Shown here: piece after piece, positions 14,261-64,000 of the stretch | Position numbering within the stretch: the stretch's first letter is position 1 | Layout: every line of letters starts with the position of its first letter | Assembly (NCBI RefSeq): GCF_021044625.1 | Contig: NZ_CP087999.1 | Span: 1,319,001-1,383,000, forward strand | DNA from: Geomonas sp. RF6 | GTDB taxonomy: Bacteria > Desulfobacterota > Desulfuromonadia > Geobacterales > Geobacteraceae | Length of the DNA stretch: 64,000 nt | Direction of reading: 5' to 3' | Position numbers and translations under genes: made by a program | The notes under the pieces: model-generated | Told to the model about the DNA's origin: nothing | The model's input: only the letters and a program-made list of their open reading frames with translations | Databases searched by the model: none

Positions 14261-14626
14261 ATGAAAAAGAACACCTCCAGCAATTCCACCCTGGTCTACA
14301 GTTCCGAACTCGGCAGAATCTGCCCGTCCTGCAACAAGCCCGTCAAAAGCTGCGTCTGCTCGAAAAAGGGCGCTCCCCCCGCCGGTGACGGCGTCGTGCG
14401 CATCAGGCGCGAGAGCAAAGGGCGCGGCGGCAAGACCGTCATGGTCATCACCGGCCTCCCGTTGGACGCGGCCGCCCTCACCCTGCTCGCCGGGGAGTTG
14501 AAGCGGCGCTGCGGCTGCGGCGGCACTGCCAAGGACGGCGTCATAGAGATACAGGGAGACCACGGGGATCTCCTCCTCGAGGAGCTTGCCAAGCGCGGCT
14601 ACAAGGCGAAGCGCGCTGGAGGGTGA
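14261..14626 (+). CDS. yciH: SUI1/eIF1-family translation factor (YciH)
   Basis: A 121-residue bacterial SUI1 protein. The zinc-ribbon-like N-terminus has CPSCNKPVKSCVC, and the SUI1 core contains RIRRESKGRGGKTVMVITGL and ELKRRCGCGGTAKDGVIEI, the two conserved blocks. The family helps discriminate start codons on the 30S subunit; its role in bacteria is modest. It is convergent with the S4 gene, stop to stop separated by 4 bases. Confidence 0.93.
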   Translation: MKKNTSSNSTLVYSSELGRICPSCNKPVKSCVCSKKGAPPAGDGVVRIRRESKGRGGKTVMVITGLPLDAAALTLLAGELKRRCGCGGTAKDGVIEIQGDHGDLLLEELAKRGYKAKRAGG

Positions 14627-14630
14627 GTGG

Positions 14631-14828
14631 TCACTCCACCTGGAAGCTGTTTCCCTCGACCTCCACCGTATCGCCCGGGCGCAGCTTCCTGCCGCGGCGC
14701 AGTTCCGTCTCCCCGTTTACCCGCACCATCCCTTCCGAGACGATGATCTTCGCCTCACCGCCCGAACATACGGCGTTTACCGCCTTTAAGAAGCTGTCCA
14801 ACTTGATGTATTCTGTGTCTATCTTCAT
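14631..14828 (-). CDS. Small S4-domain RNA-binding protein (YbcJ/YaaA type)
   Basis: A 65-residue protein consisting of one S4 domain: FLKAVNAVCSGGEAKIIVSEGMVRVNGETE in sense, then RRGRKLRPGDTVEV. The start is ATG 14828, preceded by GGAGAAAGC; the frame is open to 14894 but that extension is not family-like. Such proteins bind structured RNA, often the ribosome. Confidence 0.85.
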   Translation of the reverse strand: MKIDTEYIKLDSFLKAVNAVCSGGEAKIIVSEGMVRVNGETELRRGRKLRPGDTVEVEGNSFQVE

Positions 14829-14939
14829 GCTTTCTCCAATTGTGCGAGTGACGCCCGGGAATTCCGCCTTTACGGCAGCCGTTGAATTTATCACAGAATT
14901 CTGGTAGAAAGGACAAATTTTCCCAAGGAGAAGAACCGA

Positions 14940-15503
14940 ATGTTTACCACCAACGATTTTAAGAAGGGGCTGATCATCCAGTTAGACGGCGCCCCCTGCG
15001 TCCTTGTCGATGTCGCCTTCCAGTCCCCGAGTGCCCGCGGCGCCAACACCATGGTGAAGACGAAGTACCGCAACCTGATCACCGGGCAGGTGCTGGACAA
15101 GACGTTCCGTTCCGGCGACAAGGTCGACGAGGCCGATTTCGAGCGTCACAAGGGGCAGTTCCTCTACGCCGACGGCGGCCGCGGCGTGTTCATGGATCTG
15201 GAGAACTACGAGCAGTTCGAGATGGACGAAGACGACTTCTCCGAGCTGGCGCCGTACCTTCTCGACGGTACCGAAGTGCAGTTGGGGCTCTTCGAGGGGC
15301 GCATGGTAAGCGTCGACCTGCCGATGACCGTCGAACTGGTCGTAGCGGAGACCGCACCCGCCCTGAAGAACGCCACCGCCACCGCGCAGACGAAAGAAGC
15401 GATCCTGGAGACCGGTTTGAGGCTCCAGGTCCCGCCGTATCTGGAGAGCGGAGAGAAGATAAAGGTCGACACCAGAGACGGCCGGTTCATCTCCCGGGCA
15501 TAG
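14940..15503 (+). CDS. efpL: EF-P paralogue of the EfpL/YeiP type
   Basis: A 187-residue three-domain elongation factor P family protein that would rescue ribosomes stalled at proline or related motifs. In EF-P the tip of domain I reads PGKGxAF with a modifiable lysine; here it reads SPSARGANTMVK, the longer arginine-bearing loop that marks YeiP, recently named EfpL. Domains II and III are complete, ending with ETGLRLQVPPYLESGEKIKV, IDTR-like and SRA. It needs no lysine modification if it follows the EfpL pattern. AGGAGAAG precedes the ATG. A routine annotation would call it efp; the loop argues otherwise. Confidence 0.82.
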   Translation: MFTTNDFKKGLIIQLDGAPCVLVDVAFQSPSARGANTMVKTKYRNLITGQVLDKTFRSGDKVDEADFERHKGQFLYADGGRGVFMDLENYEQFEMDEDDFSELAPYLLDGTEVQLGLFEGRMVSVDLPMTVELVVAETAPALKNATATAQTKEAILETGLRLQVPPYLESGEKIKVDTRDGRFISRA

Positions 15504-15518
15504 CAGGTAAAAAAAGGG

Positions 15519-15547
15519 TTGACACCGAAGGTCAATCCGCGTATAAG
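15519..15547 (+). promoter_or_regulatory. Sigma-70 promoter of tRNA-Phe
   Basis: TTGACA (15519-15524), a 17-base spacer and TATAAG (15542-15547) lie just before the tRNA. This is close to consensus, as expected for a stable RNA gene. Confidence 0.85.
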
Positions 15548-15558
15548 AGTGGTTCTTC

Positions 15559-15634
15559 GCCCAGATAGCTCAGTCGGTAGAGCAGAGGATTGAAAATCCT
15601 CGTGTCGGCGGTTCGATTCCGTCTCTGGGCACCA
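15559..15634 (+). tRNA. tRNA-Phe (GAA)
   Basis: A 76-base cloverleaf with acceptor arms GCCCAGA / TCTGGGC, D-arm AGCTCAGTCGGTAGAGC, anticodon loop TTGAAAA giving anticodon GAA, T-arm GGCGGTTCGATTCCGTC, and encoded ACCA end. All arms pair. Confidence 0.97.
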
Positions 15635-15644
15635 TGCAAAAATA

Positions 15645-15684
15645 GAAAGGCCTTGCGAGTTACCGACCGCAAGGCCTTTTTTGT
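15645..15684 (+). terminator. Terminator after tRNA-Phe
   Basis: Stem AAAGGCCTTGCG / CGCAAGGCCTTT with a 10-base loop and a following TTTTTG run. Confidence 0.92.
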
Positions 15685-49337: not shown

Positions 49338-50276
49338 CTATTTGAGAACAAAAGCAACCCTTGCCCCTGCAAAAAAGTCATTTTTCTGGTTTGCCGAGTA
49401 CACCTTCACGGCATCCCCTTCAGCCAGCTGAAGGTCAGCGTTGTTGAGAGAACCGGTAGCTTTGACCACCAGTGGATTCTTCACCCCCCTCCCCGAGAGG
49501 GCCTCTTTTGCCTTTTCCACACTGCTTGTGTACTCACCGCAGCCCTGGTCGACGAGTATTTTCTGGCTCACCTTGGAGGGGTCATACAGCAGCTCACCCT
49601 TTGAGCTGAAGATGCGGTTTATGAGGGCTGGTTTGAAGTTCTGCTCAGTAGCATCGACGACCAACCCGTCGTAAAGCTCCGGCAGATTCTCCGCCTTGTG
49701 CCTGTATCTGAGCGCGGGCTTGTCGTTCAACTCCGTAAGCTTCTTCTTTAGTTGCGGGTCCCTGAAAATTTTTTCGTAGATGGAGGTAGCGAACCCTTTC
49801 GGGCCATGCATGCCGAGCTTCACTATGGCAACGGCCATGTCCTTCTCAGGGCTGTATTCCTTGTAGACGACCTGTGCCCCCTTGACGGTTCCGGCTACAG
49901 CGGAGCGCACCACATCGTACTGCTGCATGCTGTCCTTGACGAGAGTGTCCCCCACGACGGCAAAGCCGTTGAGATATTCCAGTACCGAGCGCTGCGCCAT
50001 GACCTCGGCGGTTCTCTTGGCACCGAGCTCCCTTTGCGCCGGGGTGCGCGCCTCCGGGTTGCCAACTGCTTCACCGTAAAAAAGGATGGCGTCCTGTTCA
50101 AATGGCATCGCGTAGTCCTGTCCCGACGGTCCCCCGGTGAGGGCGAGACTCTGCTGGTCAAGCCACGTCCTCGCCTTGGTGAACGTCTCGTCCAACTGCA
50201 CAGAAGCGCCACTATCGGCCACGGCGCCTTGCACCATTGCCGCGATCAGGACGGCCGCCAAAACTACCCTCTTCAT
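49338..50276 (-). CDS. Exported LPP20-like domain protein
   Basis: A 312-residue exported protein with signal peptide 1-20. About 80-175 shows the LPP20-like pattern (GAKRTAEVMAQRSVLEYLNG, VVGDTLVKDSM, MAVAIVKLGM). The C-terminal part is a separate alpha/beta region ending in FFAGARVAFVLK. Function unknown; position inside the operon argues for an envelope role. Confidence 0.7.
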   Translation of the reverse strand: MKRVVLAAVLIAAMVQGAVADSGASVQLDETFTKARTWLDQQSLALTGGPSGQDYAMPFEQDAILFYGEAVGNPEARTPAQRELGAKRTAEVMAQRSVLEYLNGFAVVGDTLVKDSMQQYDVVRSAVAGTVKGAQVVYKEYSPEKDMAVAIVKLGMHGPKGFATSIYEKIFRDPQLKKKLTELNDKPALRYRHKAENLPELYDGLVVDATEQNFKPALINRIFSSKGELLYDPSKVSQKILVDQGCGEYTSSVEKAKEALSGRGVKNPLVVKATGSLNNADLQLAEGDAVKVYSANQKNDFFAGARVAFVLK

Positions 50277-50464: not shown

Positions 50465-51664
50465 TCACATGAGGCTCAGCTTCTTCACCGAACCGTCAGA
50501 GTAGATCAACTGGGGGGTCTGCTCCACGTTGTTCTGCTTGCGGGCGAGATCCATCACGTTCGGCTGGATATCCTTGAAGAGGGCCTGAAGCTCGCACGGT
50601 TTCCTCCCCTTCTGCGCAGACTCCTTTATTGACTTCAGGAAGAAATAGGTAAAGAGCCCGTGCGCCTTCTCCTTGTAAGTGGAGCTGACCTGGTTTGTCG
50701 AGGTAGCCGTCATGACTGCAACGTTCTTCCCAAGCTGCGCTTCCTTCTCCGAAGTGAGCACCAGAGGCCGCGTTCCCTTGGGGATGACCGACCTCCCGCC
50801 ATAACCGGAAAAACAGGAATCAAGCGCCACCACCACGCTTTTGGCCTTCAACGCGCTCAGTTGCCCGTACAGCTTCTTCAACGGGTATCCGGTTTCCTCG
50901 ATAAAGGCGGGGTCGGCGTCATACGGGACCAGAAAGGAAGTGCCGTCCTTCGTGTTGGGGGCGCCGTGACCGGAATAGTAGACAAGTACCTCCGACTTCG
51001 GCGTCACGTTATTGCTGAGCCACCGGCCAAAGTACTTCTCGAAATCGCTCTTGGTGGCTTTGTCGTTGGTAAGAAGCACCACGTTCTTCGCCGGGTACCC
51101 CATGACCCTGGTGGCGTAGTTGTACACGGCTGTCGCGTCGTTGGCGGCGTAGTCGGCAGGGGGAAGGTCGCTGCGGTACTTTTCGACCCCGACGATGATG
51201 GCGAACTTGCTGGCCGTCGGACGGATCCCCTTTGCCGGAAGCTCGTCCACGTCGGAGCTAGCCACCTCCTGCACCCTGTCATCCTGTACCCGGAAACCGG
51301 GCCTCTCCTCTCCCATCATGTACGTGAAGCTCAGCAGATACCCCTTGCGGTAGGGGGGCTGGATGAACTCCTCCTTCGCCAGGTACCCTTCCGGCACGGC
51401 CCTTATGGTGTGCTCCTTCCGGTCGTTCACCAGCACCTTCACCCGCCTGCCGGTGGCTACGGACTTGCCGTCCACAAAGAAGGTGGTGCGCTCGATATTC
51501 GACTGGAGCACAATCATCTGGTTTGCGTCGTCCGACGCCTTCGGGTACAGCTCCTGATCGTTGCTGAAATCGAGATCGATAGGACCGATGGAGATCTCCT
51601 TCGGATAGGAGGCGCAGCCAGCGAACATAACCAGACAAAGGAGAAGACTGAGTAGCCTCATCAT
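50465..51664 (-). CDS. Caspase-family (peptidase C14) lipoprotein
   Basis: A 400-residue outer-envelope lipoprotein (lipobox FAGC, C17) with a beta-rich N-part (about 18-145, PEGA-like, GYLAKEEFIQPPYRKGY) and a caspase-like protease domain about 150-395. The catalytic dyad is intact: H233 in YYSGHGAP and C284 in LDSCFSG. Metacaspase/orthocaspase proteins cut after basic residues, but specificity is not readable here. ATG 51664 follows GGGGGG. It is the only enzyme in the nine-gene exported-protein operon, so it may process the others. Confidence 0.88.
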   Translation of the reverse strand: MMRLLSLLLCLVMFAGCASYPKEISIGPIDLDFSNDQELYPKASDDANQMIVLQSNIERTTFFVDGKSVATGRRVKVLVNDRKEHTIRAVPEGYLAKEEFIQPPYRKGYLLSFTYMMGEERPGFRVQDDRVQEVASSDVDELPAKGIRPTASKFAIIVGVEKYRSDLPPADYAANDATAVYNYATRVMGYPAKNVVLLTNDKATKSDFEKYFGRWLSNNVTPKSEVLVYYSGHGAPNTKDGTSFLVPYDADPAFIEETGYPLKKLYGQLSALKAKSVVVALDSCFSGYGGRSVIPKGTRPLVLTSEKEAQLGKNVAVMTATSTNQVSSTYKEKAHGLFTYFFLKSIKESAQKGRKPCELQALFKDIQPNVMDLARKQNNVEQTPQLIYSDGSVKKLSLM

Positions 51665-51727
51665 GATCACCCCCCAAAAGAGGCAGGGGGGAATATCTCC
51701 CCCCCATCCCGTAGAAGGAACAGCATG

Positions 51728-52102
51728 CTAGCGCATCGCCTTCAGGTCTTTTTTGCCGATGGTCATCTTGGCGGCGGTACCCTCGAGCTCGATGGTGGAC
51801 CACCAGTAGAGCGGGACCAGCGGGAAGGTCGTGGTGGTATCCGCCTTGTAATTGACCAGCATGTCTGCACCGGGATACTTCTTGAGAGCCTCCGCGTACA
51901 GAGCGTCAATCTCTTCCTTGCTCCAGTCCGGAGGGATGATGGCAGCCGTCTTTGTCTTGGAGATCTTGGTGCTTCCCAATGCCTTGATGTTGCTGTTGGG
52001 GTAGGCAAATCGGGACTTGTCGACGAAGTTGCCGCTTTTGAGCGTGCAACCGGAAAAGGAGGCGACGGCCACTATAGCTGCTGCTACTTTGAAAACTTTC
52101 AT
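51728..52102 (-). CDS. Small lipoprotein, paralogue of the next one upstream
   Basis: A 124-residue lipoprotein (lipobox ASFSGC). It shares with its neighbour the pattern YPNxNxxxxG, a central helix, an (x)LxxWWSTIELEGTAAK-like strand and a terminal KKDLK / LQKLK. No known family recognised. Confidence 0.7.
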   Translation of the reverse strand: MKVFKVAAAIVAVASFSGCTLKSGNFVDKSRFAYPNSNIKALGSTKISKTKTAAIIPPDWSKEEIDALYAEALKKYPGADMLVNYKADTTTTFPLVPLYWWSTIELEGTAAKMTIGKKDLKAMR

Positions 52103-52121: not shown

Positions 52122-52487
52122 CTACTTGAGCTTTTGCAGGCCTATTTCCTGCTTGGCCACAGTTCCTTCAACGCTGTACTTCACACAGTTGATGTTGAGA
52201 TAGAGAAGGGGAATGGTCCAGTCGGTCCTGAATTCTGCGAAATCTATGAGAAGGGCCCCCCTGCGGGAGGCGACTGCCTGGGAAATGGCTTCTTCCTGCA
52301 TGGCAGAAGAGATCAGTGCCGGCAGCATGACGGTGCACTTGGTGGCAGAGCCGGTGCCTGGACCGATCGGGGTGACATTGGCGTTGGGATAGCCGATGTG
52401 GGAACTGGCCTTGTAACCGGTGAACTGGGTGCATCCGGTGACTGCAATGAAAACTGCTGCCGCTGCACAGAAACCTTTTACCTTCAT
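52122..52487 (-). CDS. Small lipoprotein, paralogue of the downstream one
   Basis: A 121-residue lipoprotein (lipobox AVTGC) starting at ATG 52487 after AAAGGAGGAGG. Alignment by eye with the next gene: YPNANVTPIG versus YPNSNIKALG, and VEGTVAKQEIGLQKLK versus LEGTAAKMTIGKKDLK. It appears to head the exported-protein operon, with the leader RNA candidate upstream. Confidence 0.7.
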   Translation of the reverse strand: MKVKGFCAAAAVFIAVTGCTQFTGYKASSHIGYPNANVTPIGPGTGSATKCTVMLPALISSAMQEEAISQAVASRRGALLIDFAEFRTDWTIPLLYLNINCVKYSVEGTVAKQEIGLQKLK

Positions 52488-52616
52488 ACATCCTCCTCCT
52501 TTACAAACTTCAAATAGACGACAAAGACACGGGAGATCTCTGAAACCGCGGCAGGTGCGTGAGCCACCAAAAATCACATTGTACGAGCTGCCCGCTTCTT
52601 CTTTCTTCTGAACCAC

Positions 52617-55499: not shown

Positions 55500-55578
55500 T
55501 GCAGGCCGGATGAGCCGCAGGCGTTACTGGCGGTCCACCCGGCGCTGCCGGAAACGCTGCGCCTATTCCGGCCTACAT
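55500..55578. repeat. REP-like palindrome at the exosortase 3' end
   Basis: Arms GCAGGCCGGATGAGCCGCAG and GCGCCTATTCCGGCCTACAT pair imperfectly, with GGCGTT and AAACGCTGC inside. Same family as 3398-3476. Read on the minus strand it provides the last four codons and stop of the exosortase. Confidence 0.8.
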
Positions 55579-56570
55579 CCACACAGCTCCTTGTTCCTCT
55601 GTGCGCCGCCGATCACCCACCAGAGAGCGAATGGCAGGGCCAGAAGAAGCCCTTTCTCGACAAAAAGAAAGAGCGCAAGGGCTGCTTCGCCGTGCACGAT
55701 CCTGACTGAAAGGGAGTTGGCGATGAAGACGGCGTTCAGCACGAAGGCTCCGGCAAGGGCAAGGAGCGTCACCGCCGCGGTCTTCCAGTCCCCCCGCCGT
55801 TGCAGCGGAAGAGCGAGACCGGCAAAGACGGCGAGGTTCAGATACTCGATGGTGAACATGACGTCGTACGTCGTCCCCGCATAGGTGCTCCGCATCGTTT
55901 GCCCCGCCCAGGTCACGCCGACGCCGGGGTCGCAGAGGAAGACCTTCAGGAAGAGAGAGCTCAACAGCGCGAGAGAGTCCCCGTACTCCCGCACCCCCAG
56001 CCTCAAAAGGGCATAGAAGAAGGAGGAGGCGAGCAGCACCACCAATATCCTTTGAAGGGCGCCTCTGGTGATAGAGAGGGAGCGATCGACCCACAGCTTC
56101 CAGAGGGCGAAGATCAGGAGGGCGAAGAGAGCGACCCAGAGGTACTCATGGACCAGCTCGAAGACCGTCCATGAGATGGAGCCGCACACTCCGGTCACCA
56201 GGAGACGGAAGGCGTTTGCCAGCACGATAACCGGGACGACCGCGGCCACCCCCTGCAGCCGGTAGCGGATCGTGTGGCGCGCATAGCAGAGAATCGCCGC
56301 AGAGATGATGATGACGTAGTTGATGGCGGTGCATTCGTTGGCGATGCGCATGGCAAAGCCGTTGACCGACAGAATGTCCCGGCTCGTGGTCACCGAGAGC
56401 CCGAAGAGAGCGCCCCCCAGCGCTGCGACGCGCATGACGAGCTGGCGCCACCCTTCCACGACGGCGACCGGCAGATACGCTGCAAGCCCGACAGAGACAC
56501 CTACGGCGAGCACGAAAAGAAGCCCCAGTTCCGGCTTCCCCTTTTCTTCCTGATGATTCGAAGTTTTCAT
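55563..56570 (-). CDS. Exosortase/archaeosortase family transpeptidase
   Basis: A 335-residue integral membrane protein with about eight to ten spanning segments. The exosortase triad is complete: C80 in ANECTAINY, R122 in ANAFRLLVTG and H141 in VHEYLW. Exosortases cut the C-terminal tripartite tail of exported proteins and join them to a lipid or saccharide at the surface. The last residues (CRPE) come from a REP-like element. It starts 4 bases after the small substrate-like protein, so the pair is dedicated. The subfamily cannot be named from sequence alone. Confidence 0.88.
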   Translation of the reverse strand: MKTSNHQEEKGKPELGLLFVLAVGVSVGLAAYLPVAVVEGWRQLVMRVAALGGALFGLSVTTSRDILSVNGFAMRIANECTAINYVIIISAAILCYARHTIRYRLQGVAAVVPVIVLANAFRLLVTGVCGSISWTVFELVHEYLWVALFALLIFALWKLWVDRSLSITRGALQRILVVLLASSFFYALLRLGVREYGDSLALLSSLFLKVFLCDPGVGVTWAGQTMRSTYAGTTYDVMFTIEYLNLAVFAGLALPLQRRGDWKTAAVTLLALAGAFVLNAVFIANSLSVRIVHGEAALALFLFVEKGLLLALPFALWWVIGGAQRNKELCGCRPE

Positions 56571-56574
56571 CGAG

Positions 56575-56775
56575 CTACCTGCGCGATCTCCACATCCCGT
56601 ACATGGCTATGCCTGCTGCCACAGCGAGGGCGGCTTCCGGACCTCCAAGCGGGGTTGACGGTGTGCTGGTAACCGGCGGCATGGGGGGTCCTCCCCAGGC
56701 CGCTGCGGTAATGGTTACATAGGCAACTACGGCAACGGTAACAGCCTGTGCAACGCGGCTTCTTTTGGTGTGCAT
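56575..56775 (-). CDS. Tiny exported protein with PEP-CTERM-like sorting tail
   Basis: A 66-residue protein made of almost nothing but sorting signals: signal peptide about 1-28 (VTVAVVAYVTITAAAWG), a Pro/Thr linker (PPMPPVTSTPSTPL), then the tail GGPEAALAVAAGIAMYG and WRSRR, i.e. a PE-type motif, hydrophobic helix and basic end. That is the plan of PEP-CTERM substrates, placed directly before the exosortase. Ribosome site AGGAGG. The mature part would be under 25 residues. Confidence 0.75.
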   Translation of the reverse strand: MHTKRSRVAQAVTVAVVAYVTITAAAWGGPPMPPVTSTPSTPLGGPEAALAVAAGIAMYGMWRSRR

Positions 56776-56784
56776 GCCGTCCTC

Positions 56785-57297
56785 CTACGGTTGTTCCACG
56801 ACTAAGGTAAATTCCGATTTCGCTCCCGGCCCCGGGGCAGGGAGAAGATACCTTTCCTGCGCCACATTCCTTTCCTTTTTTCTCGCCCTGTCCTTTAGCG
56901 TCACTCTCATCCCCTTCGGCAGCGAGCTTCTGTCCTCTTGAAGCTCCACCGTCAGGGGGGTCCCCTTCGGCAGACTCGATGAGACCGACACGGCCCACTC
57001 CTGCCGCCTGGCAACGGAGCGCACGTCTCCGCGGAACTCCTTCATGGCCATATTCCACTCCGGATGAACGATCAGCGCGCTGATGTACGGCTGCCCCATG
57101 TCGGCGTTCAGATTTCCCGGCGAGATGGTGTCGTAGGCGTTGTCAAAGCCGTCGGAGGCGCGGCTGTCCTCCCCTATGAGGACATAGTCGTACACGCTCC
57201 CGCTGGAGACGCGGATCGCGGCGGCCATCGGCTCATAGGCCATGGCCGCCGCGGTGGTGAGGCAGAGAACTGCTGTAGTTATCACGAAAATGCGCAC
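56785..57297 (-). CDS. Small exported beta-rich protein
   Basis: A 170-residue exported protein with signal peptide 1-20. The rest looks like one or two beta-sandwich domains (VYDYVLIGEDSRASDGFDNA, LTVELQEDRSSLPKGMRVTL and a closing EFTLVVEQP). It starts 13 bases after the giant protein gene and may cap or anchor it. No sorting tail is seen. Confidence 0.65.
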   Translation of the reverse strand: MRIFVITTAVLCLTTAAAMAYEPMAAAIRVSSGSVYDYVLIGEDSRASDGFDNAYDTISPGNLNADMGQPYISALIVHPEWNMAMKEFRGDVRSVARRQEWAVSVSSSLPKGTPLTVELQEDRSSLPKGMRVTLKDRARKKERNVAQERYLLPAPGPGAKSEFTLVVEQP

Positions 57298-57310
57298 TGT
57301 TTGGTGGCTC

Positions 57311-60300
57311 CTACTGAATGGTCAGGCTATGGTTCTGCGAGTCGAGGTTGAGTATCCAGTACCCCTTCCACGTCTCTATCACCGGATTGCTGCCGATGAT
57401 CGACCAGGAATCGTAGGCGCTCCCGTTCCACCAGTAGACTGAGCCCCCTATCCTGTTCGCGCTGATGGCCTGCGACAGCGGGTTGCCGTCGATGAGCCAC
57501 TTCGTCCCGATATTGGTCTTGTTGCTCGTCTGCGGCGAGGCGACCATGGTCCACCCCGGCTTCAGCGTGATGCTCGCGCTGGATGGCCCGGGGTTCCCGG
57601 CATAGACGAGAGTTGTCCCGCTCCCCGTCGCCTTCACGAAGTACCCTTTCCCCGGCGTGAGGGTGGCAACGGTGACATAGGAGCCGAGCGGGGAATTGCT
57701 CGTCTCCGCTGTCGCTCCGGAAGGGACCCACTCGTACACCGCGCTCGCCCCCCCGCCGAAGAAGGTGGAGGCATTGACCCCGCTGGTGGCATACGGAACC
57801 GCGATGATGTTCCATCCGTTGTAGAGCGGCGTCCGGATCGTCATGAAGACGGTCTGGGTCGGATCGGTGTCGGAGGTGACGGTGTACTGGTAGATCGTGT
57901 TCGGCAGCAGCGCCGCCGTGTCTTTGAAGGTGGTGCTGGTCGTGGCAACGACAGGGGTGAACGCCTTGCCACCCTCGGACCGGCTGACGGTAAAGGTGGT
58001 GCCCGATTTCAATGCGGCAAAGCTGGCAGAGGGCTGTGTCGTCACCACAGGGGCCGTCAGAGCCGCTGAACATGTGGCGCTGGCGCCCCCGTTGAGACCG
58101 CTGCAGCTCCAGCTCCACGGTCCGGTCCCACTTACAGCCGAGGCGGTTCCCGCCGTGCAAAGATTGGTGACGGGGGTGGCAGAGTAGCTGGCGCCGTTTG
58201 CCGTGCCGCAGGCACCATTCACCGCGGGGTTCCCCGCCACCACGAGGACCGCCGTGGCGCTGGCGGTTGCGTAATTGGCGCTGTCGAGCGGTGTGAAGGT
58301 GACGGAGAGCGTCTGGCTGCCGGCCGTGAGGATCGCCCCGTGGGCCGGTGAGTAGCTGTACGAGCCGGGTACTGAAGCGGTCGCGTTCAGCTGGGCGGCC
58401 GAGAGCGGTGTCCCATAGGTGATGCCGGCGGGATTGCCCCAGGTGATGGCGGGGGTGGCTTTGGCAACTGTTATGGCGGCAGTTTTTGTTACCGTGCTGT
58501 AGTTTGTGGTATCGGCCGGCGTATAGGTGACCGAAAGGATCTGCCCCGCCCCTGCAGGTAGGACTGTACCCGCAGCAGGGGTATATACGAAGGAGCCGCC
58601 GGCAGGGGTTGCAGAGGCATTCAGCTGCACCGCCGAAAGAGCGGCACCGTAAGTGATACCGGCCGGATTGCTCCAGCTCACCACCGGCTGCCCCTTGGCG
58701 ACGACCAGGGTACCGCTGGCAGAACCGGTGTAGCTCGCGCTGTTGATGGTGGCGACGACGTTGTAGCTTCCCGCGCTGGACGGGACCGTGCTGCTGCCGT
58801 TGTACGTTACCTCGACCGGGAGGTTGGCAGGAGTCGTCGTCACCGTCACCCGTTTCGCTGCACCGTCATAGGTCTGGCTGAGGCTCGTGAGAGAAACCGT
58901 CGCCGCGATCTTCGGCACCACGTTCAGCGTGACCGTCTTCGTGGCCGTCGTGTAATTTGCGGTGTCGGCCGGGGTGTAGACGACGGACAACGAGTGCCTC
59001 CCGGTAACGAGAGTCGTCCCTGCTGCAGGCGCATATCCAAAGGAGCCGCCTCCCGGGGTCGCACTCGCGTTCAGCTCGGTTCCCGATAGTGCGCTTCCGA
59101 CGAAAATGTCCGCAGGGTCGCTCCAGGTAATCACGGGGGTCGCCTTCTCAACGACAAGCTTCCCGTTGCCGTAGCTGAATTCATAGTTATTGGAGAAGAG
59201 GGTGCCGCGGCTCACCACGATTTCGTACTCGCCGACGGGGGTGCCGGCGGCGGCGATGGTGCTGAAGTGTGGAGCTCCCAGGAGGTCCTTTTCGTTCTCG
59301 TTCTTCACAAAACCGCTGTAGGCGGCGGTGAAGGCAGGGTTTTCCGCACCGTACGGGCGGGAGGCATCGGCTGCGGCCACGACGAGAGGCGCCTTCTCTA
59401 CCGTAAGGGGCTCCCGGGCGGTGCCGGGGGCGTAGTTGGTGTCGCCGGGCTGGCTGGCGACGATTTCCGTAGTTCCGGCACCGACAATCGTGACGGTGCT
59501 CCCCGAAACCGTCGCTACGGCCGGGTTGGAGCTCGTGAAGGAAATCGGGTTCCGCGACTCACCGCCGGTGGCGGTGATATCGAAGGGGAGGTCTCCATAC
59601 CTCTTCCTTTCGAGAGGAGTGATGGAGACCGTCTGGCTCGCCTGCCCGACTGCCAGGGTTCCGTCAACGAACCGGAGGCTGTAATTGGCTGCCGCTAGTG
59701 TGCCTGCGGAAACGGTGATGGGATAGCTGCCAACGGGGCTTGACTGGAGAGCGCTCGTGCTGACGACCGGTTCCCCCTCGAGCTTCGCTGCTGTCTCGCC
59801 ACTGACAAAGCCGCTGTAGCTGACGGTAAATGGCGGGTTCTGCGTGTTGTACGGACGGCTCTTGTCGTCGGCGGTGACCGTCACAATGGCCTTTTCTACC
59901 GTGAGGGTCTGCTGCGCCGTCGCGGAGGCGTAGTTGCCGTCACCGGGCTGGGTGGCGGTGATGATCGTGCTCCCGGCGCCGACGATGGTGACGGTGGAGC
60001 CATCGACTGTGGCGACGGCCGTGTTGGAACTGGTGAAGCTAACGGGCTGACCGGAAGCGCCGCCGGTGTAGCTGAGGGGGAAGCTGCCTGCTCCGTATGT
60101 CTTCGGCTCGATCGGGTTGAACGTGATCGTCTGGCTGGCGAAGCCGACCGCAAGGGTACCGGGGGCGAAGACGAAGGTGTAGTTGTCAGCCGAGAGCGAG
60201 CCGATCTCAGGAGTGATCGGGTAGCTTCCGGGGATGCTGCCTGCCGTCGCCGTCGTGGTGAAACCCGGTGTCCCCGAGATGACTGCAGCCGCTGCCTCGC

Positions 60301-63300
60301 CCAGCATCAACCCGCTGTAGGTCGCAGAGAAGTCGGGATTCGGCTCTCCATAGGCGCGGCTGGCGTTGGTGGCTGTCACGGTTATGACCGCCTTTTGCAC
60401 CGTGAGGGTCTGGGCGACTGCCGCTGCGGGAAGACGGTTATCGTCGCCGCCCTGCGTGGCGGTGATAGTCGCACTCCCCGCGCCGACGATATGAATGAGC
60501 CCTTCAGCCGTAACAGTGGCCACCGCCGGCGCGCTGCTGGTATAGGCGACGGGAAGCCCGGAGGAGGCACTGGCGCCGGGTCCGAAGTCTCCCGCTCCGT
60601 ACGTTTTCTCGGCCAGTGCGCCGAAGGTGATGGTCTGGCTCCCCTTTGCGACGATGAGGGTGCCGGTCGCCGAACCCTCGAAGCTGGAGTCGTTGATGGT
60701 GGCGGTGACGGCGTAGCTTCCCGCCGATGTCGGGGCGGAGGAGGAGCCGTCGTAGCTCACTTCCACCTGCAGATTCGCCGGATCCGTGGTGGCGGTGACG
60801 GATCTGGGGGTACCGTCGTAGGTCTGGCCCAGTTTCTCCAATGTGACGGTGGCGGATCCCTTCCCGACGGCGACGGTCACCGTATCGGAGACAGGGGCAT
60901 ACCCCGGGTCGGTCGGCGTGAAGGTAATGGCTGCGCTGTAGGGGCCGACGGCTGCCGGAACGGCATCGGGCGATGTGAAGGTGAAGGTTCCGGCCACAGA
61001 CGCGGTGCCGCCGGTGAGACTCGAGGAAGAGAGGGACTGTCCGTATCTGATCCCGCTGGCGACCGGCGGGCTCGTGATGGTCGGCGTTCCCTTCGCAACC
61101 GCCACATCTACCGTAGCAGTGGCAGTCGTGTAGTTGCTGCTGTCGGAGGGAGTGAAGACGACCTCGGCGCTGTACGAACCTGTAGCTGAGGGTGCCGTCC
61201 CCGGTACCTTGAAGCTGAAGCTCCCTGCAACGGAGCCTTTGCCGCCGGTCAGTGTCGAGGCGGAGAGTGTCTGCCCATAGACGATACCGGTCGCGGTTGG
61301 AGGAGCCGTGATTGTCGGGGTTGCCTTGGCAACCGGCACATCTACCGTGACGGCCGCCGCTTTGTAATTCCCGGAATCGGCCGGTGTGAAGGTGACGGCC
61401 GCCGGATAGGTCCCTGCGGCGGTGGGGACTGCCGACGGAGCGGTGAAGGCGAACGTTCCTGCCGTGCTGGCCTTCCCGCCGCTCAGGGTGGAGGCGGATA
61501 GCGCCTCACCGAACACTATTCCGCTCGCGGCCGGTCTTTCGGTAATTGACGGCGTTGCCTGTGTCACCGTGAGTATCCCGTTGACGAAAGCGAAGTCGTA
61601 GTTGTTGGAAGTCAGTGCTCCGCGAGACGGGATGATGAAGTACGGTCCGACAGGGGAAGTGCTGCCTGCCTCGGTAGCGAAGGCCGGGGCCCCGGAAATG
61701 GCCTCCGGATTCTCGTCATTGACAAACCCTGTCATCACCGCAGTGAAGGCCGGATTGGCCTCGCCGTATGCGCGTGTCGCATCGTTGGCCGTAACGGTGA
61801 GGAAAGCTTTCCGGACGCTCAAGGTCTGCGCCACATCTGCGGCCGCGCTGTAGTTGCTGTCGCCGGACTGGCTGGCGGTGATGGTGGCGCTGCCGGCCCT
61901 GAGGACGTGAACGAGGCCGTCCGCGCTGACGGTGGCGACGGTCGGATCGGAGATTGCGTAGGTTACCGGTTTTCCGGAAGCCCCTCCGGTTGCGCGTAGA
62001 GCGAAGTCCGCTGCTCCGTAGGTGACCGGGGGTAGTGATTCAAAGCTGATGATCTGCGCCTGCTTCCCTACTGTTATTGCCGCGGGGGCACTGGGCGCGG
62101 AGAGGTGGTAATATGCGTCAGCGCCACGGGTTGCCACGATGGAGCAACTGCCTGTCCCGCTGGTGAAGGTCAGGGCGCCGGTGGAGGGATCGACGCTGCA
62201 GGCGGTGGAAGCCCCGGCGCTGTAGCTGTAGGCGCCGCTGCCGCTCCCCCCTTCCGCAGTGGCACGCAGACCCGTTTCGCCGTATGTAGCCGCTACAGGA
62301 GCACTGACCGTCACGACACCCTGCGCCGCCTTCGCCGCCGCAGTATTGTTCGTCACCGACGCTGCAGCGAGGTAGTTTCCATTCCCTTCCTGGTCGTACT
62401 GCACCACGCACGTCCCGCTCCCGCTCACCATCGTGAAGGTCGCGCCCACATTGGTGCAGATTGTCCCGGTGCCGCTGCTGTATTTCACGCTCCCGCCGGG
62501 GGCGGTCGCCGCTACAGTAAACGACGAGTTGTACGGCGCACTTGCAGGAGCCGGGGTCCCTACAGTGATCGTCTGCGCACCTCTGGCGACCAGAAGTGTC
62601 CCGCTGGCGGTCCCCTGGTACGTCGGATCGTTCACCGTTGCAGTCACCGTGTACGTTCCGGCGGCCGTCGGTGCGGTGGCGGTCGGGCCGTAGCTGGTTC
62701 CCGCCGTGCCGCTGTAGCTGACAGTCACCTCAAGAGGCGCCGGGGTTGTGGTGACGCTGACGCTTTTGGACGAACCGTCATAGGTCTGGCTGAGGTTACC
62801 GAGGGTTATGGTGGCTCTGTTTTTCGGGACCACGTTCAGTGCCACCGTCATCGTCGCAGTTGAGTAGTTGACGCTGTCCTGCGGAGTGAAGGTTGTGCTA
62901 AGGGTCTGGCTCCCCAGCGACAGTACCTCGCCTGAGTCGGGGGTGTAGGAGAAGGTACCCGGGACGGAGGCGGATCCATTGAGCTCGCTCCCGGAGAGGG
63001 GGCTCCCGACGATGATGTCGGAGGGGGTGTTCCAGGTGATGACGGGGGTCGCCTTCTCAACGACGAGCTTCCCGTTGCCGTAGCTGAATTCATAGTTATT
63101 GGAGAAGAGGTTGCCGCGGCTCACCACGATTTCGTACTCGCCGACGGGACTGCCGGCGGCGGCGGTGGTGCTGAACTGTGGAGCTCCCAGGAGCGCCTTT
63201 TCGTTCTCGTTGTTCACGAAACCGGTGTAGGCGGCGGTGAAGGCGGGGTTTTCCGCGCCGTACGGGCGGGATGCAGCGGCTACGGCCACCATGAGCGGCG

Positions 63301-64000
63301 CTTTCTCTACCGTAAGGGTCTGCCGGGCGGTGCCGGGGGCGTAGTTGGTGTCGCCGGCCTGGCTGGCGACGATTTCTGTCGTTCCGGCACCGACGATCGT
63401 GACGGTGCTCCCCGAGACCGTCGCTACGGTCGGGTTGGAGCTCGTGAAGGAAATCGTGTTCCCCGAATCGCCGCCGGTGGCGGTGATATCGAAGGGCAGT
63501 GCTCCATAGGTGTTCCTTTCGAAAGGAGTGATGGAGACCGTCTGGCTCGCCTGCCCGACCGCCAGGATTCCGTCAACGAACCGGAAGGTGTAATTGGCTG
63601 CCTTTAGTGTGCCTGCCGAAACGGTGATGGAATAGCTGCCGACGGGGCTCGACTGGAGAGCGCTGGTGCTGACGACTGGTTCCCCCTCGAGATTCGCTGC
63701 TGTCTCGCCATCGATAAAGCCGCTGTAGCTGACGGCAAGCTCCCGGTTGGGGGTGTTGTATGGGCGGCTTTGGTCGTTGGCGGTGACGGTCACGACTGCC
63801 TTTTCTACCGTGAGGGTCTGCTGCGCCGTCGCGGAGGCGTAGTTGCTGTCACCGGGCTGGGTGGCGGTGATCATCGTGCTCCCAGCGCCGACGATGGTGA
63901 CGGTGGAGCCATCGATTGTGGCGACCGCCGTGTTGGAACTGGTGAAGCTAACGGGCTGACCGGAAGCGCCGCCGGTGTAGCCAAGGGGGAAGCTCCCTGC
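57311..64000 (-). CDS. Giant MBG/Ig-like repeat surface protein (partial, 5' end outside)
   Basis: At least 2229 residues; the frame is open to the window edge, where AGSFPLGYTGGASGQPVSFT continues the repeat pattern, so the start lies beyond 64000. It is a string of beta-domains: Big_2-like (SFTSSNPTVATVSGSTVTIV, GDTNYAPGTA), MBG_2/YDG (ASRPYGAENPAFTAAYTGFV, ANYTF), and Ig-like cap units (LNASATPGGG, TYTPADTTNYSTVT). Near the C-terminus come an ANG-ACG-type Cys-containing unit (VNGACGTANGAS), a fibronectin-like stretch and a closing domain with LYNGWNIIAVPY and LKPGWTMVASPQ. No exosortase tail is present. It is probably a secreted adhesin or matrix fibre and heads the exosortase operon. Confidence 0.85.
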   Translation of the reverse strand, partial: AGSFPLGYTGGASGQPVSFTSSNTAVATIDGSTVTIVGAGSTMITATQPGDSNYASATAQQTLTVEKAVVTVTANDQSRPYNTPNRELAVSYSGFIDGETAANLEGEPVVSTSALQSSPVGSYSITVSAGTLKAANYTFRFVDGILAVGQASQTVSITPFERNTYGALPFDITATGGDSGNTISFTSSNPTVATVSGSTVTIVGAGTTEIVASQAGDTNYAPGTARQTLTVEKAPLMVAVAAASRPYGAENPAFTAAYTGFVNNENEKALLGAPQFSTTAAAGSPVGEYEIVVSRGNLFSNNYEFSYGNGKLVVEKATPVITWNTPSDIIVGSPLSGSELNGSASVPGTFSYTPDSGEVLSLGSQTLSTTFTPQDSVNYSTATMTVALNVVPKNRATITLGNLSQTYDGSSKSVSVTTTPAPLEVTVSYSGTAGTSYGPTATAPTAAGTYTVTATVNDPTYQGTASGTLLVARGAQTITVGTPAPASAPYNSSFTVAATAPGGSVKYSSGTGTICTNVGATFTMVSGSGTCVVQYDQEGNGNYLAAASVTNNTAAAKAAQGVVTVSAPVAATYGETGLRATAEGGSGSGAYSYSAGASTACSVDPSTGALTFTSGTGSCSIVATRGADAYYHLSAPSAPAAITVGKQAQIISFESLPPVTYGAADFALRATGGASGKPVTYAISDPTVATVSADGLVHVLRAGSATITASQSGDSNYSAAADVAQTLSVRKAFLTVTANDATRAYGEANPAFTAVMTGFVNDENPEAISGAPAFATEAGSTSPVGPYFIIPSRGALTSNNYDFAFVNGILTVTQATPSITERPAASGIVFGEALSASTLSGGKASTAGTFAFTAPSAVPTAAGTYPAAVTFTPADSGNYKAAAVTVDVPVAKATPTITAPPTATGIVYGQTLSASTLTGGKGSVAGSFSFKVPGTAPSATGSYSAEVVFTPSDSSNYTTATATVDVAVAKGTPTITSPPVASGIRYGQSLSSSSLTGGTASVAGTFTFTSPDAVPAAVGPYSAAITFTPTDPGYAPVSDTVTVAVGKGSATVTLEKLGQTYDGTPRSVTATTDPANLQVEVSYDGSSSAPTSAGSYAVTATINDSSFEGSATGTLIVAKGSQTITFGALAEKTYGAGDFGPGASASSGLPVAYTSSAPAVATVTAEGLIHIVGAGSATITATQGGDDNRLPAAAVAQTLTVQKAVITVTATNASRAYGEPNPDFSATYSGLMLGEAAAAVISGTPGFTTTATAGSIPGSYPITPEIGSLSADNYTFVFAPGTLAVGFASQTITFNPIEPKTYGAGSFPLSYTGGASGQPVSFTSSNTAVATVDGSTVTIVGAGSTIITATQPGDGNYASATAQQTLTVEKAIVTVTADDKSRPYNTQNPPFTVSYSGFVSGETAAKLEGEPVVSTSALQSSPVGSYPITVSAGTLAAANYSLRFVDGTLAVGQASQTVSITPLERKRYGDLPFDITATGGESRNPISFTSSNPAVATVSGSTVTIVGAGTTEIVASQPGDTNYAPGTAREPLTVEKAPLVVAAADASRPYGAENPAFTAAYSGFVKNENEKDLLGAPHFSTIAAAGTPVGEYEIVVSRGTLFSNNYEFSYGNGKLVVEKATPVITWSDPADIFVGSALSGTELNASATPGGGSFGYAPAAGTTLVTGRHSLSVVYTPADTANYTTATKTVTLNVVPKIAATVSLTSLSQTYDGAAKRVTVTTTPANLPVEVTYNGSSTVPSSAGSYNVVATINSASYTGSASGTLVVAKGQPVVSWSNPAGITYGAALSAVQLNASATPAGGSFVYTPAAGTVLPAGAGQILSVTYTPADTTNYSTVTKTAAITVAKATPAITWGNPAGITYGTPLSAAQLNATASVPGSYSYSPAHGAILTAGSQTLSVTFTPLDSANYATASATAVLVVAGNPAVNGACGTANGASYSATPVTNLCTAGTASAVSGTGPWSWSCSGLNGGASATCSAALTAPVVTTQPSASFAALKSGTTFTVSRSEGGKAFTPVVATTSTTFKDTAALLPNTIYQYTVTSDTDPTQTVFMTIRTPLYNGWNIIAVPYATSGVNASTFFGGGASAVYEWVPSGATAETSNSPLGSYVTVATLTPGKGYFVKATGSGTTLVYAGNPGPSSASITLKPGWTMVASPQTSNKTNIGTKWLIDGNPLSQAISANRIGGSVYWWNGSAYDSWSIIGSNPVIETWKGYWILNLDSQNHSLTIQ
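59125..60091 (-). repeat. Long internal duplication in the giant gene, copy 1
   Basis: This stretch matches 63034-64000 at an offset of 3909 bases (1303 codons) with only scattered differences, e.g. both contain CCGTTGCCGTAGCTGAATTC at 59164 and 63073. The match is far closer than among other repeats of the gene. Confidence 0.8.
63034..64000 (-). repeat. Long internal duplication in the giant gene, copy 2 (runs off the window)
   Basis: Second copy of 59125-60091. Homology continues to the window edge and may extend further. Weaker colinear similarity also reaches left to about 62770, matching 58860. Confidence 0.8.

What the first reader, a model, noticed from the sequence alone, without database searches (positions are those of the whole stretch)
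55563..64000. Exosortase operon with a 66-residue substrate made almost only of sorting signals
Four minus-strand genes with gaps of 13, 9 and 4 bases encode a giant repeat protein, a small exported beta protein, a tiny protein with signal peptide plus PE-motif/helix/RSRR tail, and an exosortase with C80/R122/H141 intact. In known exosortase systems substrates carry the sorting tail on large mature domains. Here the only tail is on a protein whose mature part is under 25 residues, while the giant protein has none. The small protein may be a pilot, lipid-linked tether or regulator for surface display of the giant protein. The tail motif (GGPEAA) is a variant I cannot assign.
Basis: partly seen in the sequence, partly recalled or inferred. 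Interest (0 to 1): 0.85.

Follow-up and report, generated by a model that had tools for sequence, protein, structure and literature searches.

The report
Exosortase with a tail-only peptide substrate
In soil bacteria related to Geobacter, the tag that a membrane enzyme uses to fix proteins on the cell surface appears to have become a tiny protein of its own, encoded beside very large surface proteins that lack the tag.

Summary
In detail: giant protein, small beta protein, 66-aa signal-peptide-plus-tail protein and exosortase lie on the minus strand with gaps of 13, 9 and 4 bases. The tiny gene is real and conserved. Its tail (consensus PSTPVGGxExxxxTxxAIAxYGxWKSRK) fits no NCBIfam sorting-tail model. 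Of 277 genomes of the class, the tail was found in exactly the 12 that hold this unassigned exosortase subfamily; in one of them it also ends a 450-aa propeller/Ig protein beside its enzyme. So the tiny protein is very probably a true substrate. The giants differ in architecture but share a ~170-aa C-terminal domain (CTD). One CTD protein is 56% identical over 346 aa to a protein that elsewhere carries a fused sorting tail: CTD plus separate tail peptide stands where the tail in cis was. In two genomes another exosortase type with another tail fills the same slot, while CTD, beta protein and a PPxPP motif after the signal peptide are kept. Best reading: a split-substrate exosortase system, in which an anchored peptide holds a CTD-bearing surface protein. 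Cleavage, anchoring and binding are inferred, not shown. A new variant of a known kind, so far seen only in the window's order.

The parts
55563..56570 (-). exosortase of an unassigned subfamily (335 aa); Cys80, Arg122, His141
55566..56078 (-). extra C-terminal membrane region of the exosortase (about 170 residues; 185-242 residues follow the His in the 13 long exosortases, 34 in the short type)
   Evidence: boundary approximate
56575..56775 (-). tiny tail-only protein (66 aa), presumed exosortase substrate
56674..56688 (-). PPMPP (residues 30-34), the PPxPP motif after the presumed signal peptide
56578..56652 (-). sorting tail, residues 42-66: PLGG motif, hydrophobic helix, YGMWRSRR
56785..57297 (-). 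small exported beta protein (170 aa), no Pfam or NCBIfam family over cut-off
57311..64000 (-). giant surface protein; 3671 codons in all, continuing to position 68326 in window coordinates; Peptidase_S8, MBG domains, C-terminal domain
57314..57823 (-). C-terminal domain (CTD, 170 residues) shared with the giants of related cassettes

Best explanation
This is a split-substrate exosortase system. The sorting tail that exosortases normally find at the end of a larger exported protein is here a separate protein of about 60-74 residues: signal peptide, a short proline-rich stretch (PPxPP) and the tail. The exosortase recognises the tail, presumably cleaves near the P[VL]G motif and passes the small peptide to a lipid or other surface anchor. 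The giant protein has no tail; it ends in a CTD. The anchored peptide, probably through PPxPP and with the beta protein as partner, holds the CTD and so displays the giant. Shown by sequence: gene order, co-distribution, conservation of the tail, joint replacement of enzyme and tail, and interchange of fused tail and CTD on homologous surface domains. Inferred: cleavage, anchoring, the binding contacts and the final location.
For: Tail and enzyme: 13 full-length exosortases in 12 of 277 class genomes; tail at E below 1e-9 in those 12 and not in the 2 other genomes searched with them; the whole tiny-protein profile reaches the tail in the same 12 of 277. The same tail ends a 450-aa protein directly before its exosortase in G256. 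Joint replacement: G032 and G253 keep giant CTD and beta but have another tail protein and a short exosortase, which is the other side of a 100/100 branch. Fused tail against CTD: 56% identity over 346 aa between an Oryzomonas CTD protein and a Geomonas protein with a fused tail, 40% over 255 aa with a second. Giant and tiny: 13 of 14 strong CTD places lie beside a tail-protein gene, with at most the beta gene between; in Geomonas Red32 two giants are each followed directly by a tiny gene far from the exosortase. PPxPP after the signal peptide in 16 of 16 linked and 2 of 9 unlinked tail proteins. Selection: dN/dS 0.07-0.27 in six pairs of tiny genes, of which three have saturated synonymous change.
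Against: No cleavage, anchoring or binding was shown. G011 has exosortase and tiny gene but no CTD or beta was found (85% complete genome), and Red32 has a lone tiny gene, so tiny can occur without a giant beside it. In G254 three tiny genes follow a beta protein without a full exosortase beside them, and its full exosortase follows a tail-less protein. One unlinked short-type substrate has PPQPP just before its tail and another has PPxPP in its middle, so PPxPP may be a plain linker. Beta and CTD models were too weak to show a binding site. Kinship makes the counts non-independent.
Confidence: 0.58

Rival explanations
1. The tiny protein is a transient pilot, chaperone or regulator of the exosortase that helps export the giant or the beta protein and is then destroyed; it is no lasting anchor.
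For: It is small, and always or nearly always encoded near exosortase, beta or giant. In Red32 the exosortase and beta gene lie apart from two giant-tiny pairs, so the tiny protein travels with the cargo.
Against: The same tail ends a 450-aa surface-type protein, and in two cassettes the slot holds proteins of 157 and 283 aa with an Ig domain and a sorting-type tail, which look like display proteins.
Confidence: 0.2
2. The cleaved proline-rich peptide is itself the product (a matrix or signalling peptide) and the giant reaches the surface by another route; the genes are together for regulation only.
For: A lone tiny gene in Red32 and a tiny gene without CTD or beta in G011.
Against: CTD places lie beside a tail-protein gene in 13 of 14 cases, and homologous surface domains end either in a CTD or in a tail.
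Confidence: 0.13
3. The CTD of the giant is the real attachment signal, read by the beta protein or an unknown sortase, and the tail-only protein is a relic of an older fused substrate.
For: The CTD is strongly conserved (58-67% identity to the window's), and CTD and beta occur in the same 12 genomes, beta also in G254 and as a fragment in G231.
Against: The tiny gene evolves under purifying selection, and its tail is found in the same genomes as the exosortase.
Confidence: 0.07
4. The tiny frame is not a gene.
For: It has only 66 codons.
Against: Protein-level conservation in 12 genomes with dN/dS 0.07-0.27 in six pairs, and a GGAGG-type site before the start codon.
Confidence: 0.02

Closest known systems
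Exosortase / PEP-CTERM system (Haft et al. 2006, PMC1569441; passages read)
   Same: Membrane cysteine enzyme with Cys-Arg-His, and a C-terminal tail made of motif, helix and basic end on exported proteins; tail and enzyme share their distribution
   Different: The tail here is outside the PEP-CTERM model, sits on a tail-only protein, and the large neighbour ends in another domain; the enzyme has a longer C-terminal region
Exosortase H, TIGR04177 (NCBIfam)
   Same: Best-scoring member-level model for the window's exosortase, 58.6 bits
   Different: Below its cut-off of 86 in the window and in all other long exosortases scanned; different tail
Dedicated sorting systems as defined for rhombosortase (PMC3237569; passages read)
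   Same: Enzyme and its single target usually adjacent; perfect or near-perfect co-distribution
   Different: There the single target is a full-size protein; here mostly a peptide, with a large non-target partner
IPTL-CTERM S-layer protein of Methylomirabilis (PMC8671808; passages read)
   Same: A surface protein of a diderm bacterium with signal peptide and an exosortase-type tail
   Different: Tail in cis on the surface protein
Type IX secretion cargo with C-terminal domain and sortase (recalled; mentioned in PMC7468200, seen in a search listing only)
   Same: Diverse surface proteins share one C-terminal domain that governs surface attachment
   Different: No type IX model was listed for the part of the giant scanned; here the exosortase-type tag is on a separate peptide

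Membership tests
Exosortase/archaeosortase superfamily (TIGR04178) | Score over the signature cut-off | tested here: met
   43.2 bits against 23; over it too in the six other long exosortases scanned
Exosortase/archaeosortase superfamily (TIGR04178) | Conserved Cys, Arg, His | tested here: met
   13 of 13
Exosortase/archaeosortase superfamily (TIGR04178) | Cleaves and transfers a C-terminal tail | not testable with these tools
   needs mass spectrometry
Exosortase H (TIGR04177) | Score over the curated cut-off of 86 | tested here: not met
   58.6 bits; 38.7-49.6 bits in the six other long exosortases scanned
Exosortase-type sorting tail (CTERM) | Motif, hydrophobic helix, basic end, on a protein with a signal peptide | tested here: met
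   signal peptide by hydropathy only
PEP-CTERM (TIGR02595) and other catalogued tails | Match to a tail model | tested here: not met
   no tail model listed for the window's tiny protein at E<=10, nor for three other tiny proteins and the 450-aa protein at E<=1; the tiny gene is not among the 14 PEP-CTERM matches of its genome
Dedicated one-enzyme one-target system | One target in the genome, adjacent to the enzyme | tested here: met
   one tail in the window's genome at E<=5, next to the enzyme; not met in G207 (3 tails) and G254 (4 tails)
Type IX secretion cargo CTD | Match to a type IX C-terminal model | tested here: not met
   NCBIfam scan of the giant's 2229 residues in the window, CTD included, listed one unrelated weak family at E<=10; genes of the type IX machinery were not looked for

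The most novel reading that the evidence does not exclude
Sorting in trans: an exosortase anchors a stand-alone peptide, which then captures large and otherwise different surface proteins through a shared CTD, so that one anchor can serve different cargoes and the enzyme-tail pair can be exchanged without changing the cargo.
Probability: 0.55. Interest if true: 0.82.

Novelty: new variant of a known kind. Interest (0 to 1): 0.66.

Why it matters
Sortase-type systems are understood as reading a tail at the end of the protein that is displayed. A tail that has become a free peptide, with a replacement domain on the cargo, would be a second logic for surface display in diderm bacteria. It also offers a very small natural substrate, on which the cleavage site and the attached group of an exosortase could be read directly by mass spectrometry.

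Tried and rejected
Window exosortase as exosortase H: rejected on the curated cut-off. GGPEAA as a PE signature: rejected by alignment. Extra C-terminal region of the exosortase as a fusion of the ~150-aa membrane protein that follows the short-type enzyme: no support in a profile comparison (probability 0.8%, E 0.066). Fold of the beta protein: pLDDT 71, best Foldseek E 0.034, none at 0.001 or better, not interpretable. Fold of the CTD: pLDDT 59, not searched. A first scan of named genomes with the exosortase alone found no relative; the beta alignment found 9 loci. Phylum-wide, the tiny-protein profile matched 1 of 375 genomes at E<=1e-6, the window's own. Beta tree: only 2 of 10 inner branches are well supported; the two beta proteins linked to short exosortases are never one side of a branch in 200 bootstrap trees, but the number and direction of exchanges stay open.

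Rows dropped and limits: in the PPxPP count the short-type substrates of G231 and G232 were left out because their N-termini could not be read with confidence, and the second locus of G017 because no tail protein was found beside it; in four control loci (L130, L133, L136, L137) the script found no exosortase by its pattern. A first Fisher table typed by hand (15/0/2/9) was replaced by the counted table (16/0/2/7). In one search five further genomes (G032, G253, G044, G185, G230) matched the tiny-protein profile, but none to its end. The genome searches score only the best first-look candidates, so misses are possible. The tail alone was searched in 14 genomes only. The dockerin-like end of the beta proteins of G254, and the likeness to beta and CTD of the two genes before its full exosortase (L066), are judged by eye; the profile searches did not list that L066 place.
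Full report
What is there. On the minus strand, giant, beta, tiny and exosortase genes follow each other with gaps of 13, 9 and 4 bases. The exosortase passes the superfamily signature but no member-level model and carries Cys-Arg-His. The tiny protein is a presumed signal peptide, PPMPP, a few more residues and a motif-helix-basic tail. The giant's frame runs on to position 68326: 3671 codons with Peptidase_S8, MBG domains and a C-terminal domain, without a tail. The genome holds two other exosortases, one just over the XrtA cut-off and one nearest XrtV but below its cut-off, and 13 PEP-CTERM tails over the model's cut-off, in frames of 96-271 codons.

The tiny gene is tied to this exosortase. 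An exosortase profile found 13 full-length relatives (185 bits or more; the next hit has 65) in 12 of 277 genomes of the class. A tail profile, run on 14 genomes, matched at E below 1e-9 in those 12 and not in the other two. A profile of the whole tiny protein reached the tail in the same 12 of 277; five further genomes matched other parts of it only. Of the 19 genomes of the Geomonas genus, 7 have this exosortase and the tail, 12 have neither. In a phylum sample of 375 genomes only the window's own matched. dN/dS was 0.07-0.27 in six pairs of tiny genes, three of them with saturated synonymous change.

Gene order at the 13 exosortase loci. Giant, beta, tiny, exosortase: 8 (window, G017, G022, G202, G198, G206, G259, G256 contig 22). 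Giant, tiny, beta, exosortase: 1 (G201). G207: exosortase and beta about 3 kb apart, tiny genes elsewhere. G254: full exosortase after a tail-less protein; four tiny genes on other contigs, three of them right after a beta protein (of one only the end is on the contig). G256 contig 38: exosortase right after the 450-aa tail protein. G011: exosortase, then tiny, no giant or beta found. In Geomonas Red32 (G207) two CTD giants are each followed directly by a tiny gene and a third tiny gene stands alone. This suggests that exosortase and beta act in trans and that giant plus tiny is the cargo unit (inference).

The tail is a sorting tail. In G256 the same tail ends a 450-aa protein with a Virginiamycin-B-lyase-type propeller and an Ig domain, right before its exosortase, while the same genome has a second locus with all four genes.

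Enzyme and tail change together. In G032 and G253 the giant with CTD and the beta gene are kept, but then come a protein of 157 or 283 aa with an Ig domain and a VPVM..W...ARRRK-type tail, a short exosortase, and a ~150-aa membrane protein. The short exosortase of G032 scores nearest to archaeosortase B and XrtF and below every member-level cut-off listed. On an enzyme tree 13 long and 10 short exosortases are two sides of a 100/100 branch. On the beta tree the two do not group, with weak branches.

Fused tail and CTD are alternative ends. The 718-aa CTD protein of Oryzomonas MAG_BA72 is 56% identical over 346 aa to a 362-aa protein of the Geomonas genus (G204) that ends in a VPVM-type tail beside a short exosortase, and 40% over 255 aa to a protein of G255 that also ends in such a tail. 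MBG domains occur with a CTD in the window giant and with a fused tail in G232; repeats are weak evidence.

CTD and beta. The CTD has 58-67% identity to the window's in 11 others. In the nine giants scanned, what Pfam finds before it differs: subtilase with MBG, MBG, NHL, YNCE/lactonase-type propeller, RCC1 with cadherin-like, RCC1 with He_PIG, fn3 with carboxypeptidase-regulatory, Big_3_5, He_PIG; the giants of G198, G201, G202 and G206 were not scanned, and a stretch just before the CTD is also alike in some (window and G259, by eye). Strong CTD matches (over 270 bits) occur at 14 places in 12 of 277 genomes; 13 lie beside a tail-protein gene with at most the beta gene between, and the last is a short remnant. 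G254 has partial matches and eight other genomes distant ones of 44-61 bits. Beta occurs in 14 of 277 genomes: the same 12, G254, and a fragment in G231.

PPxPP. Near residue 30 it is present in 16 of 16 tail proteins beside a CTD giant or a beta gene, including the two with the other exosortase type, where an Ig domain separates it from the tail; elsewhere in 2 of 9 (Fisher p 7.5e-5, kinship ignored). Two unlinked proteins have PPxPP further on, one of them just before its tail, so a linker role is not excluded.

Mechanism. The most economical account is that the tail moved from the large protein to a small one, which the exosortase anchors and which then holds the large protein through the CTD, with beta as probable partner and PPxPP as probable contact. 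Cleavage, attachment, binding and place are inferred from what is known of exosortase-type systems (passages read in PMC11980579 and PMC3237569).

Relation to what is known. It belongs to the exosortase superfamily and works like a dedicated sorting system (PMC3237569, passages), but fits no catalogued exosortase or tail. Seven library searches (exosortase with CTERM and dedicated; with Geobacter; with archaeosortase and sorting signal; with PEP-CTERM or putative Ig domain; IPTL-CTERM; exosortase with small protein and tail; Geomonas with surface protein) listed no paper whose title or shown start of abstract describes a tail-only substrate; I read passages of six of the listed papers, no whole paper. 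Haft et al. 2012 is not held. So absence from print is not established.

Noticed in passing
window 50465-51670 (-), with neighbours 49338-50276, 51728-52102, 52122-52616: A 401-aa caspase-like protein (Pfam Peptidase_C14, 61 bits) with a lipoprotein-like N-terminus by eye, in a row with three small exported or lipoprotein-like proteins without Pfam families.
   Followed up: partly
L127, about 14614-15664 (window coordinates 68614-69664, beyond the window): Upstream of the giant gene, short frames made of near-identical repeats of about 50 residues, probably a repeat array rather than genes.
   Followed up: no
L051 26-685, L054 2622-3356, L118 5259-5381: In an uncultured Geobacteraceae genome (G254) the beta protein carries a C-terminal dockerin-like stretch (by eye), directly before a tiny gene.
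   Followed up: partly
L036 10313-11381, L120 7963-8983, L071 2702-3755: The short exosortase type with VPVM..W tails is followed by a ~150-aa membrane protein that has no NCBIfam family in the one case scanned; this pair also looks uncatalogued.
   Followed up: partly
L033 11868-13296: The most divergent long exosortase (G011, long branch) has the tiny gene after it, with a run of nine prolines; no giant or beta found in that genome.
   Followed up: partly
L118 4887-5045: A 52-residue frame that looks like a truncated start of an exosortase lies right after a tiny gene in G254 (by eye).
   Followed up: no
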